DNA of 40,818 bases, from NCBI RefSeq assembly GCF_009767945.1, contig NZ_WSRS01000003.1, forward strand, positions 1 through 40,818, written 5' to 3'. The DNA is from Streptococcus danieliae. Its GTDB lineage: Bacteria > Bacillota > Bacilli > Lactobacillales > Streptococcaceae. A program made the position numbers and the translations under genes. Below, one piece after another: positions 3,362 to 15,555 of the stretch (its first letter is position 1; the number at the start of each line of letters is the position of its first letter). The notes beneath the pieces were generated by a model, which was not told the origin of the DNA, did not search any database, and saw only the letters and a list, made by a program, of their open reading frames with translations.

Positions 3362-3607
3362 ACACCTTGATACACCCTGTGACAGAAAAATCCATCAACC
3401 ATGCGGATTTAGAAGATTTTGTAACAGAGTAACAGGGTTGAGACCGACCCATACCTTATATATAAATAAAATATAAATCATCATATCTTAGATTGACCTT
3501 GATACCTTGTTACATTATCTATTTTAGACCTTATAAATGCTTTAGTACCAAGGCTTTAGGTATGTAACAGGGTCACCCTGTTACACCCCCGAACACCCTG
3601 ATACAAA
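3362..3607. other. Candidate phage replication origin with iterons
   Basis: This 246-bp noncoding gap lies between the prim-pol and helicase genes. It holds nine copies, in both orientations, of an 11-mer close to ACCCTGTTACA: 3364-3374, 3374-3384, 3420-3430 (inverted), 3428-3438 (inverted), 3496-3506, 3504-3514, 3563-3573 (inverted), 3575-3585 and 3594-3604. Between the clusters is an AT-only-like tract at about 3457-3490. Iterons around an easily melted core, next to primase and helicase genes, are the established hallmarks of an origin, and streptococcal Sfi21-type phages carry their noncoding origin at this same place. No promoter or ORF explains the repeats. Confidence 0.8.
3563..3585. 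repeat. 23-bp perfect palindrome of two iterons
   Basis: The 11-mer TGTAACAGGGT (3563-3573) and its exact complement (3575-3585) face each other around a single C at 3574. This is the only perfect dyad in the candidate origin and the best site for a dimeric initiator or for hairpin extrusion. Confidence 0.85.
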
Positions 3608-5146
3608 TTAAACGATATGCATATCAAACCGTTTTTTGTTATCGATGACATATCCTCGGACCACTTGACCGTTAACTCGTTTAGATACGGTCCTCACTCC
3701 AATTTCAGACAAAGCTTTTCCAAGTTTTGATCCGTTTTTGCCATAAACTACATTTGATAAATCAATCACTTCTTTGTTGTCCGTCCGCTGGACAAAATCA
3801 ACTTCTTGCAAAGCGTTGATTAAAGCTAACTGAAAATCATCCAAATCAATGTCATTAAACACCTCAACATTTCTCCAGAAGAACTTACAATCCTGCTCTT
3901 TAAAATACTTCATGGCATGAAGTAAAAATCCAACGCTTGCTGCAACCTTTGGTGACTTATCTCGATAAGTAAATGATTTCCAGTAAGGTGCAAAAAACTC
4001 CTCACGTTCAAAGTCCGTCTCCTCTTTCGGTCTGTCTTTATACTGAATTAGTACAGAACGAGAATTCATCTCATCAGACAAGGCAACAGTTCGGTTGGTA
4101 TCGATACACAAAACACTGGTCAACTCAACCAAAGACTGGTTCTGCTGGATTGCCCTAGCAACGTGTGTGCGCTCCGTTGCGATAATCTTTAAGACTCGCT
4201 CCATTGCAAATCCTTGGATATCACCCTGCTCTGTCGCAAGAGCCATCTCACCGCCTGAAAACATGGCCCAGGCTTGTAGACCTTCAAACCCGCCGGATTT
4301 CAGGAGATCCAACTCCACATCAATTTTCTTGAACAAGCCAGATAAAGCGATATGTCGCAACCCCTTCCCAGTCCGCACCCCTGATTTAGAGATGAAGAAA
4401 TTGGTTTTAGGACGGATGCCACAAGCGACGTGCGCCATATAGTACGGCTGCAGTGTGGCATTATGGAGTGAGTCTGGATCAGCAATAACTTTGTTTAAGA
4501 AATCCTCAGCAACTAACATCCCAGCTTTAGCCAGTTTGCGAGTGACTGGATAATACTTGAAGTATGAGATGTTCTGTTTTGGAACCTCATTCAAGAGTTC
4601 GTTGCTTTCAAGATCAATCACGAAATCCTCACAAGCAATTTTATAAAGTTCTATACCTTTCGCTGGTGGAACATCTAAGAAATGATGGATCCCCTCAAGG
4701 ATTTCAAGAATATGGTTTAAGTCCTTGAATCCGTACCTAGTTGCAATAGCGAAATCATCCAGTGATTTGAACTGCCGCCCACTGACATCGTAGAGTTTAC
4801 CTTCAATGAAAGCATAGCGTCCAATCAGATAATCGCAGACCAATTTTGCGAAAGGTTGGAATCCCCTGTTTGCTGTAAATGTAATCTCATTGGTTTGATT
4901 ATGAGTTGAGAATGTACCAGATACAAAACGGTAATTAGTTCGTCCATTCGATGTGTAGTAGCCAATATCATCTGCATCAATTTGAACAGTCTCAAACAAG
5001 TACTTAGCAACGCCATTTTTATCTACGGGCTTTATATCGTGTAATTGTTTTTTTAGTTCAGCTTTTAAAATCGATTCCCCAAACAGACTGGAAGCCCAGT
5101 CCGCTTGGTTAATCAATTTTGCGAGCCGTTCAGAAAATTGCTCCAT
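3608..5146 (-). CDS. SF3-like replicative helicase/primase
   Basis: 512 aa. The central ATPase domain has a Walker A-like motif FISKSGVRTGKGLRH near residue 255, a Walker B-like GGEMALATEQGDI near 295, and a sensor-like VLCIDTNRTVALSDE near 345, an order that fits SF3/D5-type phage helicases. The C-terminal winged region ends RVNGQVVRGYVIDNKKRF. It corresponds to the orf504-type protein of Sfi21-like streptococcal phages, expected to unwind DNA at the adjacent origin, which starts right after its stop. The ATG is 12 bases downstream of the DUF669 stop, in the same operon. Confidence 0.8.
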   Translation of the reverse strand: MEQFSERLAKLINQADWASSLFGESILKAELKKQLHDIKPVDKNGVAKYLFETVQIDADDIGYYTSNGRTNYRFVSGTFSTHNQTNEITFTANRGFQPFAKLVCDYLIGRYAFIEGKLYDVSGRQFKSLDDFAIATRYGFKDLNHILEILEGIHHFLDVPPAKGIELYKIACEDFVIDLESNELLNEVPKQNISYFKYYPVTRKLAKAGMLVAEDFLNKVIADPDSLHNATLQPYYMAHVACGIRPKTNFFISKSGVRTGKGLRHIALSGLFKKIDVELDLLKSGGFEGLQAWAMFSGGEMALATEQGDIQGFAMERVLKIIATERTHVARAIQQNQSLVELTSVLCIDTNRTVALSDEMNSRSVLIQYKDRPKEETDFEREEFFAPYWKSFTYRDKSPKVAASVGFLLHAMKYFKEQDCKFFWRNVEVFNDIDLDDFQLALINALQEVDFVQRTDNKEVIDLSNVVYGKNGSKLGKALSEIGVRTVSKRVNGQVVRGYVIDNKKRFDMHIV

Positions 5147-10964: not shown

Positions 10965-11174
10965 CTACTCCACTTTTCGTGAAGTTCGTTCTGTAAAAAT
11001 ATAGCCAATATCCTTCTCGAATAATTTGGCTATTTTAAAAACTTCAGAAAGTTTAAAATCAGTTTGGTCTAACTCTTTACTTCTATATGACGCTTCCGAA
11101 ATGTTTAGAAAATTACCCATTTGAGCTTGAGTTAGCCCTCTTTCCTTTCTAAGTTCATATAATCTTACTTGCAA
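10965..11174 (-). CDS. Cro-like XRE-family regulator
   Basis: 69 aa, one XRE helix-turn-helix: LYELRKERGLTQAQMGNFLN, then ISEASYRSKELDQTDFKLSE, with a short C-terminal tail. The size and place fit a Cro repressor for the lytic operon. The start is a TTG (11172-11174) seven bases after GGAGGTG; there is no alternative ATG upstream. Unusually, it is separated from the CI promoter by more than 1.4 kb holding an antisense gene pair and three small genes. Confidence 0.8.
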   Translation of the reverse strand: MQVRLYELRKERGLTQAQMGNFLNISEASYRSKELDQTDFKLSEVFKIAKLFEKDIGYIFTERTSRKVE

Positions 11175-11193: not shown

Positions 11194-11225
11194 TATAAAT
11201 TTTTATTCGCCCTGTTGGGCAACAG
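11194..11225 (-). promoter_or_regulatory. Candidate promoter/operator of the Cro-like gene
   Basis: On the minus strand, -35 TTGCCC (11222-11217), 17-bp spacer and -10 TTTATA (11199-11194). A 14-bp palindrome, CTGTTG-GG-CAACAG (11212-11225), covers the -35 box and is a plausible repressor site. Confidence 0.5.
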
Positions 11226-11266
11226 CCAGCCGTGGAATCGAACCACGATAAAGACCAATTCTGGCT
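11224..11266 (-). other. tRNA-like acceptor/T-arm element
   Basis: Read on the minus strand, AGCCAG (11266-11261) pairs with CTGGCT (11229-11224), and inside it CGTGG-TTCGATT-CCACG (11247-11231) forms a canonical T arm: 5-bp stem and 7-nt loop with the TTCGA sequence found in tRNAs. Only about 13 nt replace the D, anticodon and variable arms, so this is not a functional tRNA, and no CCA follows. It may be a decayed tRNA or a minihelix that recruits tRNA-processing enzymes. Confidence 0.6.
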
Positions 11267-11274
11267 TATGAGTT

Positions 11275-11283
11275 TGGTATAAT
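11275..11283 (+). promoter_or_regulatory. Extended -10 promoter of the 144/102-aa pair
   Basis: TGGTATAAT, 27 bases before the ATG at 11311. Shares the 13-mer GGTATAATTAAAG with 9195-9207. Confidence 0.6.
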
Positions 11284-11310
11284 TAAAGAAAAACGATTGG
11301 AGAATAGACT

Positions 11311-11745
11311 ATGCTGGGAATTCCATGGCTAGAATGGTTAGAAATTTTCAACACAATTACAACACCCATAGCTTTTATAATAACCATATACACTTTTAAT
11401 GTAGCTAGAGCCACCAGTGATAAATTAGAAGAGACAAGGGAAATTAGTCGATTAAACGCAGAGTCCAACCTCTTTTTAGGTCACTTAGATGCTATAAAGA
11501 TTGTTATTGATAAAAATGATAATCTAAAAAACGAAGTTCCAAAAAATATATTAGCTAGTTTATACAATACCTTAACTGATATAGAAACTCGCTATCCACG
11601 GGCTACTCAAAATAATACAACTCTCAACGAGAATCTACAGAAGCTTACTGATCTTTGTAAACAAGAACATACTACTTTTGAGGAAGTAACTAAGCCTTTT
11701 AAGTCAATTTACAATATCATTTCTATTAGAAAGGATGGAATCTAA
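11311..11745 (+). CDS. 144-aa membrane-anchored prophage accessory protein
   Basis: ATG eight bases after GGAG. The first 30 residues carry one transmembrane helix (IFNTITTPIAFIITIYTFNV). A soluble helical domain follows (about 35-140) with ATSDKLEETREISRL, an Asn-rich middle and a charged C-terminus. No family is recognised. The stop and the next ATG share TAATG, so the two proteins are made together. The pair lies between the Cro-like and CI genes on the lysogenic strand with its own promoter, a layout typical of superinfection-exclusion or defence genes. Role is inferred from position only. Confidence 0.8.
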   Translation: MLGIPWLEWLEIFNTITTPIAFIITIYTFNVARATSDKLEETREISRLNAESNLFLGHLDAIKIVIDKNDNLKNEVPKNILASLYNTLTDIETRYPRATQNNTTLNENLQKLTDLCKQEHTTFEEVTKPFKSIYNIISIRKDGI

Positions 11746-12053
11746 TGAAAGATATTATTGATTCTTTGGTTAATCTAACCTTAGACCACGAGATAGAATG
11801 GAACACTATTGATAAACTGATAGTTAATGGTGAACCCTATGTTCATTTCCGACATATCCTCATAGACCAATCCTACTTCACAAAGTACAACGATAAGACT
11901 TTTGTTATTCTATACGGAGAAGCATTAAACTGGATTGACCAAAGCACAATACGTCAATTCTTTTTTCAGCAAATTGAAGATAATGCTATAACTGATATAG
12001 ATTTCCCGATTAAAGATATAGTAAAACTTCATACCATTATTCAAATAGCTTAA
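11745..12053 (+). CDS. 102-aa soluble partner of the membrane protein
   Basis: Starts at the A of TAATG, with GGATGG upstream. The sequence (MKDIIDSLVNLTLDHEIEWN, IDKLIVNGEPYVHFRHILID, then a C-terminal IVKLHTIIQIA) has alternating helix/strand pattern, no membrane segment and no recognised motif. Strict coupling to the upstream membrane protein suggests they act together. The stop lies right against the end of a minus-strand gene (12054), so a terminator is not visible between convergent units. Confidence 0.75.
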   Translation: MKDIIDSLVNLTLDHEIEWNTIDKLIVNGEPYVHFRHILIDQSYFTKYNDKTFVILYGEALNWIDQSTIRQFFFQQIEDNAITDIDFPIKDIVKLHTIIQIA

Positions 12054-12606: not shown

Positions 12607-12635
12607 ATTATACTTCACGATAAGTGAGGTGTCAA
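12607..12635 (-). promoter_or_regulatory. Lytic promoter with repressor operator
   Basis: On the minus strand, TTGACA (12635-12630), exactly 17 bp, then TATAAT (12612-12607): a full consensus promoter for the early operon. The spacer holds a dyad TCAC-GATAA-GTGA (12615-12627), the likely CI operator. Further TCACGA-type half-sites lie at 12669-12677 and a variant at 12679-12687, in front of the cI gene. Confidence 0.8.
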
Positions 12636-12728: not shown

Positions 12729-13514
12729 ATGAATGAGAAAGACTTAGCCAAATATATTGGTTCGAAAATAAAAGAGTATCGTAAATTAAGGGGATTGACA
12801 CAAAAAGAGTTAGCTCAAAAAATCAAAATGGGAGATACTACTATTGCGAATTATGAAAAAGGGTTTCGTTCTCCAAAAAAAGATACCATGTTTGCATTAG
12901 CGAATGCGTTTGATATTTCCATTGATGATCTATTTCCTCCTATCAACTCTATTTCGCAAGATTCGACAACTCCCCAAGAAATACCCTCTTCCGTCAGTAA
13001 ACTCAATTCTGAACTTAATACAGAAAATCACAGCAAGTGGATTGATTACGGAAACGAACTACTAGAAGAACAGAATACCGTCCAAGAAGAATCTGCTGAA
13101 TACAGTAGCGATAAAGTGGTCTCAATAAAGAAAAAACTATTCAAATACCATGTCTACGAAAAGCTTTCGGCTGGAACCGGAGAATCTTATTTCAACGACT
13201 GGAATTACGACGAAGTCTACTACGATGAAGAAATCGACCATGATTTTGCCTCTTGGATTTTTGGTGATTCCATGGAACCTCGTTTCTTAAACGGTGAGGT
13301 CGCACTCATTAAAGATACTGGATTCGATTACGACGGTGCCATCTATGCTGTTGAATGGGACGGACAAACCTATATCAAAAAAGTCAAACGTGAAAAAGAT
13401 GGTCTCCGTCTTATTTCTCTAAACTCAAAATATAAAGATAAGTTTGCCCCTTACGACGAAGATCCACGGATCATCGGAAAGATTGTTGGTAGTTTCCAAC
13501 CTATTTCAATTTAG
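12729..13514 (+). CDS. CI-type repressor, XRE plus S24 LexA-like peptidase
   Basis: 261 aa. Residues about 10-65 form an XRE helix-turn-helix (KIKEYRKLRGLTQKELAQKI onward). Residues about 140-261 are the S24 autoprotease: cleavage site A148-G149, serine nucleophile in FGDSMEP (S181) and general-base lysine in YIKKVKRE (K217). It maintains lysogeny by binding the operators at 12615-12687 and is cleaved upon RecA activation after DNA damage, so the prophage looks SOS-inducible and its key repressor residues are intact. Confidence 0.95.
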   Translation: MNEKDLAKYIGSKIKEYRKLRGLTQKELAQKIKMGDTTIANYEKGFRSPKKDTMFALANAFDISIDDLFPPINSISQDSTTPQEIPSSVSKLNSELNTENHSKWIDYGNELLEEQNTVQEESAEYSSDKVVSIKKKLFKYHVYEKLSAGTGESYFNDWNYDEVYYDEEIDHDFASWIFGDSMEPRFLNGEVALIKDTGFDYDGAIYAVEWDGQTYIKKVKREKDGLRLISLNSKYKDKFAPYDEDPRIIGKIVGSFQPISI

Positions 13515-14460: not shown

Positions 14461-15555
14461 ATGGCATATTTTCGAAAACGAACCAACGGATGGGAATATC
14501 GCATCTCCTACAAGACTCCCGATGGGAAGTACAAGCAGAAATCTAAGTCTGGTTTTCGAACAAAAAGCGAAGCTGTTCGCGCTGCATCCGAAGCGGAACT
14601 TGAATTAGAACCAGGTTTACGGATTGAAAAAGAGATTACCTTTGCGGATTACTTCAAAAAGTGGTATCTAATACATAAACAACCCCATATTTCTACTGGG
14701 ACAATTAAGCACTACCAAACGGCGCATGCTGCTATTCTAAAATATTTCGGAAACATACAATTGAAATCGCTCACCCCGTCCATATATCAAGAAACACTGA
14801 ATGAAATGGGAAAGCATTATCGAAAAGGTACACTTCGGCTGCTAAATTCCAAATACAGATCGTGTGCCAAATATGCGGTTATGGATAGAATTATCTCTGT
14901 CAATTTTGCAGAAGTTGCTAAAGTCCATTCTTCTGTTCCTCCTAAAAATTTAGATGAAAAATTTTTATCGGAATCAGAATATAAACTGCTTATTGAAGAG
15001 ACTAAGAACAATCCCTTTAAACTCCGAAACCTACAACTTTATCTTTTGGCAGTAACTGGAATGCGTGTAGGAGAAAGCTTGGGATTGACCTGGGATGATG
15101 TTGACTTCGAAAAAGGTGAGTTGAATATCAATAAGACTTGGGATATTTATACTCGCGATAAGTTCGCAAAGACAAAAAACGATCAATCAATACGGACTAT
15201 TCCAATCGATGATGATACAATTAAATTACTGCGTGAATACAAACAAGGCTACTGGAAGCAAAATGAACATAATCGCCTGTTTACTTCAGACGCTCACGCT
15301 TTTCTCAATAAACGGATAAAATCCTTAGTAGGCAGAACTGTCCATGTACATTCGTTGAGACATACATACGTCAGTTATTTACTTTCAAGCGGAATTGAGG
15401 TTCTGACTATCTCTAAATTGATTGGTCACAAAGACCCAACAATTACACTGAACACTTACTCTCACCTTTTGAGAGAAAGAGAAATTGAGGATTACCAAAA
15501 GATAAAAAAACTTTTTGGGGCAGATTTGGGTCAATATACCAAACAAAGCCTTTAA
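14461..15555 (+). CDS. Tyrosine recombinase, phage integrase
   Basis: 364 aa, full length. The N-terminal arm-binding domain ([19 protein letters not shown]...) is followed by a SAM-like core-binding domain (about 60-150) and the catalytic domain. Catalytic residues are visible: R202 in TGMRVGES, H297 and R300 in HSLRH, H323 in IGHKD and nucleophile Y333 in NTYSHLL. It integrates and excises the prophage by site-specific recombination. GAGGTGAGTTT precedes the ATG. The stop is 23 bp before mnmE in the same direction, so read-through into mnmE is possible. Confidence 0.97.

What the first reader, a model, noticed from the sequence alone, without database searches (positions are those of the whole stretch)
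11224..11266. tRNA-like acceptor/T-arm mini-element between Cro and the accessory pair
The minus strand carries a 6-bp acceptor-like stem and a canonical T arm (5-bp stem, TTCGATT loop) joined by 13 nt instead of D and anticodon arms. Acceptor plus T arm is the minimal substrate known for RNase P. The long lytic transcript passes through this point just before cro, so it could be a processing site, or a relic of a tRNA carried by the phage.
Basis: partly seen in the sequence, partly recalled or inferred. Interest (0 to 1): 0.62.

Follow-up and report, generated by a model that had tools for sequence, protein, structure and literature searches.

The report
Armless tRNA mimics in phage operons
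The small hairpin beside this prophage's cro-like gene belongs to a family of stripped-down tRNA look-alikes (the end of a tRNA that processing enzymes grip, without the part that reads codons) found in phages of several bacterial groups, probably a signal that makes the host's tRNA-processing enzymes cut phage messages.

Summary
Confirmed, and larger than reported. Window 11266-11224 (minus strand) folds into a 6-bp acceptor stem, a 12-nt linker and a 6-bp T arm with a UUCGAUU loop. A covariance model built only from other loci hits it at 38.1 bits (E 3e-8; next best in the window 11.9). Both stems covary (score 1.14 against 0.26 shuffled). The linker nearly always holds GG (52 of 54 sequence clusters), like the tRNA D-loop, so I read it as a tRNA without D stem and anticodon arm that keeps the elbow. 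It occurs in 26 of 284 Streptococcus genomes, 12 of 80 sampled Lactobacillales genera, Bacteroidetes genomes and environmental phage contigs. In 10 annotated streptococcal phages, 12 of 12 strong matches lie on the lytic strand: in the early region near cI/cro or next to late regulators and terminase. In the Lactobacillales set U follows at N74 in 38 of 38 clusters and a purine at N73 in 36 of 38, as expected for CCA-less pre-tRNAs cut by RNase Z. Best reading: a t-element-like cis signal for RNase P/RNase Z (0.55). Rivals: put-like antiterminator, decoy RNA. No cleavage was shown. No Rfam 15 family matched it.

The parts
11224..11266 (-). armless tRNA-like element (whole): acceptor stem, linker with GGU, T arm
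   Evidence: R1 38.1 bits; R2 46.4 bits
11261..11266 (-). acceptor 5' strand AGCCAG
   Evidence: pairs with 11224-11229; stem covaries in relatives
11249..11260 (-). linker AATTGGTCTTTA; the GG is read as a mimic of D-loop G18G19
   Evidence: GG in 52 of 54 clusters
11243..11248 (-). T stem 5' strand TCGTGG
   Evidence: pairs with 11230-11235
11236..11242 (-). T loop TTCGATT
   Evidence: fits UUCRANY (consensus recalled); TTCGATT is the commonest loop, 40 of 79
11230..11235 (-). T stem 3' strand CCACGG
11224..11229 (-). acceptor 3' strand CTGGCT, followed by G (N73-like) and U (N74-like)
11207..11222 (-). second small hairpin TTGCCC-AACA-GGGCGA, one nt after the element
   Evidence: MFE; by eye similar short hairpins followed by AATAAAAA stand after the element in EJ-1 and phiGBSVK-D
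10965..11174 (-). cro-like HTH gene 49 nt downstream of the element
   Evidence: (HTH_3 1.3e-7)
12607..12635 (-). lytic promoter-like site TTGACA-17-TATAAT, upstream of the element on the same strand
   Evidence: 12 of 12 matches; a consensus match only
11275..11283 (+). extended -10 promoter-like TGGTATAAT of the accessory pair; not part of the element
   Evidence: the same stretch recurs in streptococcal phages; in EJ-1 it is annotated 'extended -10 promoter'
11311..12053 (+). accessory gene pair (144 and 102 aa), function unknown; not part of the element
12729..13514 (+). CI-like repressor with S24 peptidase domain

Best explanation
The element is one member of a phage-borne RNA family: a tRNA reduced to acceptor stem plus T arm, with a short linker that carries GG so that a D-loop/T-loop elbow can still form (the elbow is inferred). 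It sits in the lytic-strand leaders of the early operon and of the late region. Most likely it is a cis processing signal: host RNase P cuts at the 5' side of the acceptor stem and RNase Z after the discriminator-like nucleotide, releasing a roughly 44-nt tRNA-like piece and setting new ends on the phage transcript; in this window that would give cro a fresh 5' end about 48 nt before its start codon. Shown: structure, covariation, conserved GG and T loop, flanking R73-U74 in the Lactobacillales set, lytic strand, operon-leader position. Inferred: elbow docking, cleavage by RNase P and RNase Z, and the purpose of the cut.
For: Covariation: R1 alignment, 13 sequences, 98.7% of cells paired, score 1.136 against 0.255 +- 0.046 shuffled and at most 0.313 slid; R2 alignment, 22 sequences, 98.1%, 1.146 against 0.214, slid at most 0.247. 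R1, made without the window, finds it. GG in 52 of 54 clusters against 29% of random stretches of the same loci. Lactobacillales set: N74 is U in 38 of 38 clusters, N73 a purine in 36 of 38, also where position 13 is unpaired (13 of 20 such clusters of the whole set have R-U). None of the 52 GG-bearing clusters is followed by an encoded CCA (list). Streptococcaceae tRNAs are all CCA-less and cut by RNase Z right after the discriminator (passages of PMC8549757); C just after the discriminator suppresses B. subtilis RNase Z (passages of PMC7479834). Acceptor + T stem-loop is an efficient RNase P model substrate, and the phage RNAs M3 and C4 are known RNase P substrates (passages of PMC11143913). 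RNase P and RNase Z both grip the tRNA elbow (passages of PMC4810234). Plant mitochondrial t-elements are the working precedent (passages of PMC11658184). 12 of 12 strong matches in 10 annotated phages are on the lytic strand.
Against: No RNA-end or cleavage data. No encoded CCA, which the described RNase P model substrates carry or whose contact (RPR GGU) they use. Coaxial helix length varies from 11 to 15 bp. Outside Lactobacillales N74 is C in 12 of 14 clusters, which would disfavour a B. subtilis-type RNase Z. Distance to the next SD-preceded start is not different from random overall (median 440 against 380 nt), so 'making a new mRNA 5' end' is not a general rule. Several streptococcal phages lack it: MM1, IPP11 and Javan278 gave no match, so it is dispensable. 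Loci were often fetched with patterns or models that contain GG, which inflates the GG count.
Confidence: 0.55

Rival explanations
1. Put-like antiterminator: the folded leader RNA stays on RNA polymerase and lets it pass terminators, as HK022 put RNA does (recalled), and the tRNA shape is only a stable fold.
For: Placement at starts of long phage operons; in the window a second hairpin follows after one nt; terminator-like hairpins stand after the units in late leaders, seen by eye; copies are often multiple.
Against: T loop, linker GG and R73-U74 conservation are tRNA features that an antiterminator has no reason to keep; R2 finds nothing in the HK022 record; the terminators were judged by eye and the terminator scan, limited to loops of 3-8, did not list them.
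Confidence: 0.18
2. Decoy or stable small RNA: the armless tRNA is matured and acts in trans, for example occupying RNase P, CCA enzyme or a tRNA-sensing defence protein.
For: Arrays of 2-3 divergent copies in one leader; top-half tRNA features only; phages of several phyla.
Against: Many phages carry one copy, in an mRNA leader close to a gene; nothing shows accumulation or a target.
Confidence: 0.12
3. 5'-end stabiliser or structural insulator of phage mRNAs (protection from 5' exonucleases or RNase Y), with no cleavage.
For: In three early-region members (L054, L240/Javan133, phiGBSVK-D) the element follows a -10-like TATTATA sequence within about 20 nt (by eye), so it may lie at the very 5' end of the transcript.
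Against: Any hairpin would do; the specific T loop and GG are unexplained; the promoter scan found no such promoter at the window element.
Confidence: 0.08
4. Decaying relic of a phage tRNA, or an integrase attachment remnant.
For: One late-leader slot holds a 68-nt unit that Rfam scores as tRNA (30.2 bits, gathering 29) in Javan169 and minimal versions with the same acceptor/T arm in other phages.
Against: Compensatory change in both stems, fixed linker motif across phyla, several divergent copies per phage; in the window the integrase gene (14461-15555) is 3.2 kb away with cI in between.
Confidence: 0.05

Closest known systems
Plant mitochondrial t-elements (seen in passages of PMC11658184)
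   Same: tRNA-like structures without translation role, next to mRNAs, no encoded CCA
   Different: Plant t-elements are cleaved, CCA-tailed and base-modified by experiment; here no experiment. The present family is smaller (about 42-50 nt), phage-borne, has a conserved GG linker and sits in operon leaders.
RNase P minimal model substrate AT1 (seen in passages of PMC11143913)
   Different: AT1 is synthetic, derived from tRNA-Phe, with C74-type 3' residues; the natural elements have no encoded CCA and a 7-14 nt linker with GG.
Phage RNAs cleaved by RNase P: phi80 M3 RNA, P1/P7 C4 RNA, P4 CI RNA (M3 and C4 named in PMC11143913; P4 CI recalled)
   Same: small structured phage transcripts handled by host RNase P
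   Different: Whole-record R2 searches of phi80 and P4 found no member. P1 was fetched in part but not searched.
HK022 put antiterminator RNA (recalled)
   Same: structured leader at the start of phage operons, two hairpins in tandem in the window
   Different: No R2 match in HK022; no T loop known in put (recalled).
Viral tRNA-like structures with elbow mimicry, e.g. TYMV (passages of PMC4810234)
   Same: elbow mimicry to recruit tRNA-binding factors
   Different: Those are RNA viruses of plants, with 3' genomic ends and pseudoknots; here dsDNA phages, leader position, no pseudoknot.

Membership tests
canonical tRNA gene | D arm and anticodon arm present | tested here: not met
   12-nt linker in their place; ARAGORN 0 genes in the window; no Rfam tRNA match
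canonical tRNA gene | T arm with G53-C61 and UUCRANY loop | tested here: met
   CGTGG UUCGAUU CCACG
the phage family defined here (models R1/R2) | acceptor stem, GG linker and T arm with covarying stems | tested here: met
   R1 38.1 bits with the window left out of the model; R2 46.4 bits, window also not among its 22 sequences
t-element-like processing signal | tRNA-like acceptor/T arm in a polycistronic transcript | tested here: met
   structure and lytic-strand operon-leader position
t-element-like processing signal | cleaved by RNase P and RNase Z in vivo | not testable with these tools
   no RNA data at hand
RNase P minimal substrate | acceptor plus T stem stacked over about 12 bp | tested here: met
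   window 6+6 bp; 31 of 79 distinct elements have 12 pairs, range 11-15
RNase P minimal substrate | 3' RCCA | tested here: not met
   window is followed by GTTG; none of the 52 GG-bearing clusters has an encoded CCA
CCA-less pre-tRNA cut by RNase Z | discriminator followed by a non-C nucleotide, no CCA | tested here: met
   window G-U; Lactobacillales set U74 38 of 38. Not met by the non-Lactobacillales members: C in 12 of 14
HK022 put RNA | sequence/structure similarity to put in the HK022 record | tested here: not met
   R2 0 matches in AF069308 at E 1 or better
HK022 put RNA | antitermination in cis | not testable with these tools
   needs a reporter assay
any Rfam 15 family | reaches a gathering score | tested here: not met
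   window 0 matches; 12 loci with members: only 3 tRNA matches, none on a minimal element
tRNA-borne attachment site | next to integrase and attP | tested here: not met
   integrase 14461-15555, 3.2 kb away beyond cI

The most novel reading that the evidence does not exclude
Double-stranded DNA phages of Firmicutes, Bacteroidetes and other bacteria share a dedicated class of armless tRNAs, arranged singly or in arrays in early and late operon leaders, that work as 'tRNA punctuation' for phage genomes: each is matured by the host's RNase P and RNase Z (its flanking nucleotides tuned to the host's CCA-less or other pre-tRNA chemistry), and the released mini-tRNAs then also act in trans on a tRNA-binding host factor.
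Probability: 0.2. Interest if true: 0.9.

Novelty: new variant of a known kind. Interest (0 to 1): 0.76.

Why it matters
A natural, recurrent RNA that keeps only the tRNA top half and an elbow-like GG would show that phages use the host's tRNA maturation enzymes as a control point for their own transcripts. It gives a defined, testable handle on how early and late phage leaders are processed in Gram-positive hosts, natural minimal substrates for RNase P and RNase Z, and a covariance model with which annotation could find it. If the released pieces act in trans, they would be a new sort of phage small RNA.

Tried and rejected
Conserved-neighbour lead: the first BLAST matched mainly the extended -10 promoter of the accessory pair (element's neighbour), not the element; set aside. 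Accessory-pair and cro protein scans of viral contigs gave no relatives by tblastn. G125 and G218 blastn matches were read and show no element. Of 25 contigs matching the relaxed pattern, 7 (L074, L075, L076, L078, L084, L087, L088) lack the stems and were dropped; 18 have them. The pattern did not ask for any pairing, so dropping 7 cannot make the pairing of the 18, but percentages 'paired' are for selected rows. In one search (37 contigs) matches of other lengths than 23-24 nt were mostly left aside as tRNA-like or unpaired and not examined one by one; L057 (23 nt) lies in an ARAGORN tRNA-Met. The recurrent 22.4-bit, 30-nt streptococcal matches of R1 are tRNA-Arg where checked (2). One measure does not separate structure from shuffles: 'pairs with a change on both sides' is reached by 40 of 500 and 125 of 500. 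Distance to the next gene start: no rule. A pseudoknot GGUC::GAYU between linker and loop was considered and left, because linkers such as ACGGUACUA keep only GGU. PADLOC gave nothing for the accessory pair.

Literature: searches; in the listings shown no paper describes this family. Papers seen in passages only: PMC11143913, PMC11658184, PMC4810234, PMC8549757, PMC7479834.

Full report
1. The observation. At window 11266-11224, minus strand, the sequence is AGCCAG / AATTGGTCTTTA / TCGTGG / TTCGATT / CCACGG / CTGGCT: six acceptor pairs, a 12-nt linker, six T-stem pairs counting a U.G, a T loop, and no nucleotide between the T stem and the acceptor 3' strand. The 86-nt fold has this structure and a further small hairpin one nt on (z -2.56). 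It is no tRNA gene. A scan for the architecture finds one site in the window and two in 60 resampled windows.

2. It has relatives. A blastn of the region in 284 Streptococcus genomes mostly matched the neighbouring promoter, but two weak matches (L027, S. caballi; L028, S. vicugnae; names) hold the same architecture with a different acceptor stem. The linker-plus-T-arm pattern, which says nothing about the acceptor stem, hits 3 of 284 genomes, and all three have the acceptor stem. In viral contigs the relaxed pattern gave 25 contigs, 18 with both stems. Thirteen of these sequences make model R1: 98.7% of cells paired, 11 of 12 pairs with changes on both sides, covariation 1.136 against 0.255 for shuffles and at most 0.313 for slid partners; RNAalifold finds the same structure unaided. 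R1 does not contain the window and hits it at 38.1 bits, with 11.9 for the next site.

3. The wider family. Divergent copies keep only GG(U) of the linker. Model R2 (22 sequences, window not among them) has covariation 1.146 against 0.214. At E 0.001 it matches 26 of 284 Streptococcus genomes, 38 places, six of them in one genome, and 19 of 395 Lactobacillales genomes in 12 of 80 genera. Members with R1 scores of 36-59 bits occur in Mesonia, a Marinilabiliaceae MAG and Phocaeicola, and in environmental phage contigs. Copies come singly or in arrays: L083 two, L064 two, L238 three, L269 three, L271 three, L288 three, L297 three.

4. Where it lies. In 19 named phage records searched whole with R2, 10 have a full-length match of 30 bits or more, 12 matches in all, 12 of 12 on the strand of the lytic genes: EJ-1, Javan53, Javan5, phiGBSVK-D (two), Javan133, Javan414, Javan169, Javan503, Javan157 (two), Javan128. 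No such match: MM1, IPP11, Javan278, Javan253, PP766232, TP901-1 (19 bits), HK022, P4, phi80. Early places: EJ-1 4777-4817, overlapping the stop of ORF5 and 38 nt before ORF6; Javan133 3571-3612, 35 nt before a repressor-like gene; S. caballi L054, 34 nt before an HTH gene; window, 49 nt before its HTH gene; a Mu-like phage (L043) between a divergent repressor and a transposase gene. Late places: beside phrog_36/phrog_248 late regulators in 10 loci (L028, L062, L259; L260, L268, L269, L271, L297; L294, L276) and before terminase in Javan169, Javan157, Javan503. Of 20 neighbouring proteins from 18 genome loci, 17 match a PHROG at E 0.001 or better, so these are prophage places in the main.

5. 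tRNA features. Of 54 clusters (differing in more than six positions) 52 have GG in the linker; random stretches of the same loci have GG in 29%. The loci were partly fetched with GG-containing patterns, so this number is inflated, but it also holds for second copies that no search had asked for, for example EJ-1, fetched for its promoter. After GG comes U in 62 of 77. Loops are UUCGAUU 40, UUCGACU 17, UUCGAAU 11 of 79. In tRNA, G18 and G19 of the D loop dock in the T loop, and the G19-C56 face is what RNase P and others read (passages of PMC4810234). I infer the same docking here; it was not modelled.

6. Flanks. In the frame of 12 stacked pairs, 38 of 38 clusters of the Lactobacillales set have U as second nucleotide after the helix and 36 of 38 a purine as first; of the other 14 clusters 12 have C as second. 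The grouping was by source genome or named phage; one contig, L062, was put in by similarity to S. vicugnae. Among the 20 clusters of the whole set in which position 13 cannot pair, 13 still have R-U. Streptococcaceae tRNAs are all CCA-less and depend on RNase Z, which cuts right after the discriminator (passages of PMC8549757), and C there suppresses B. subtilis RNase Z (passages of PMC7479834).

7. Relation to tRNA. In aligned streptococcal late leaders one slot holds the same acceptor and T arm with different middles: a 68-nt unit in Javan169 that Rfam calls tRNA at 30.2 bits, minimal units with a 12- or 14-nt linker in L246, L241, Javan503, Javan128 and Javan157, and a near-continuous hairpin with a 1-nt linker in PP766232 and Javan5. 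A second slot is minimal in five of the eight leaders with the same T arm, while PP766232 has a 102-nt unit ending in that T arm and acceptor. The constant part is the top half of tRNA. The direction of change is not known.

8. Mechanism. The features that stay constant are those RNase P and RNase Z read, in a position where a cut would separate parts of long phage transcripts. This is the t-element principle (passages of PMC11658184) in a phage. I give 0.55 to the cis processing signal, 0.18 to a put-like antiterminator, 0.12 to a decoy RNA. Against processing: no encoded CCA, helix lengths of 11-15 bp, C at N74 outside Lactobacillales, no constant distance to the next gene, and no RNA data at all.

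9. Novelty. No Rfam 15 family matches and the paper searches listed under Tried and rejected showed no description. The kind, tRNA-like elements that borrow tRNA enzymes, is known; an armless phage version with a conserved GG linker is a new variant.

Noticed in passing
window 11275-11304 (+): An extended -10 promoter stretch (TTTGGTATAATTAAAGAAAAACGATTGG) shared with many streptococcal phages (79 of 115 matched records are Streptococcus phages); in IPP11 and EJ-1 it stands before a gene on the strand opposite to its neighbours. It looks like a common promoter of lysogeny-expressed accessory genes.
   Followed up: partly
window 11311-12053 (+): Accessory gene pair of unknown function. Homologues of the second protein in S. 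caballi L054 (45% identity) and Javan278 (53%), of the first in Javan278 (36%), in different positions relative to cro; no PADLOC match.
   Followed up: partly
L256 2819-2893 (PP766232.1 17160-17234): A tRNA-His gene (GTG anticodon) in the late leader of a S. agalactiae phage, between two tRNA-like slots.
   Followed up: partly
L254 13313-13374 (TP901-1): A 62-nt tRNA-like fold between alt and terS of the lactococcal phage TP901-1, larger than the minimal element.
   Followed up: no
L251 17683-17741 (EJ-1): A longer acceptor/T-arm fold without short linker in the leader before the late genes of EJ-1.
   Followed up: no
L028 1107-1177 (-): Rfam reports a second tRNA (30.0 bits) next to a tRNA-Lys in the S. 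vicugnae prophage; ARAGORN reported only the tRNA-Lys.
   Followed up: no
L259 2861-2877 and homologous leaders: A conserved hairpin CAAGG-GTCGCAA-CCTTG inside a longer stem stands directly before the second tRNA-like slot in the late leaders.
   Followed up: no
L267 1501-1541: A member lies 78 nt before an integrase gene, unlike the other places.
   Followed up: no
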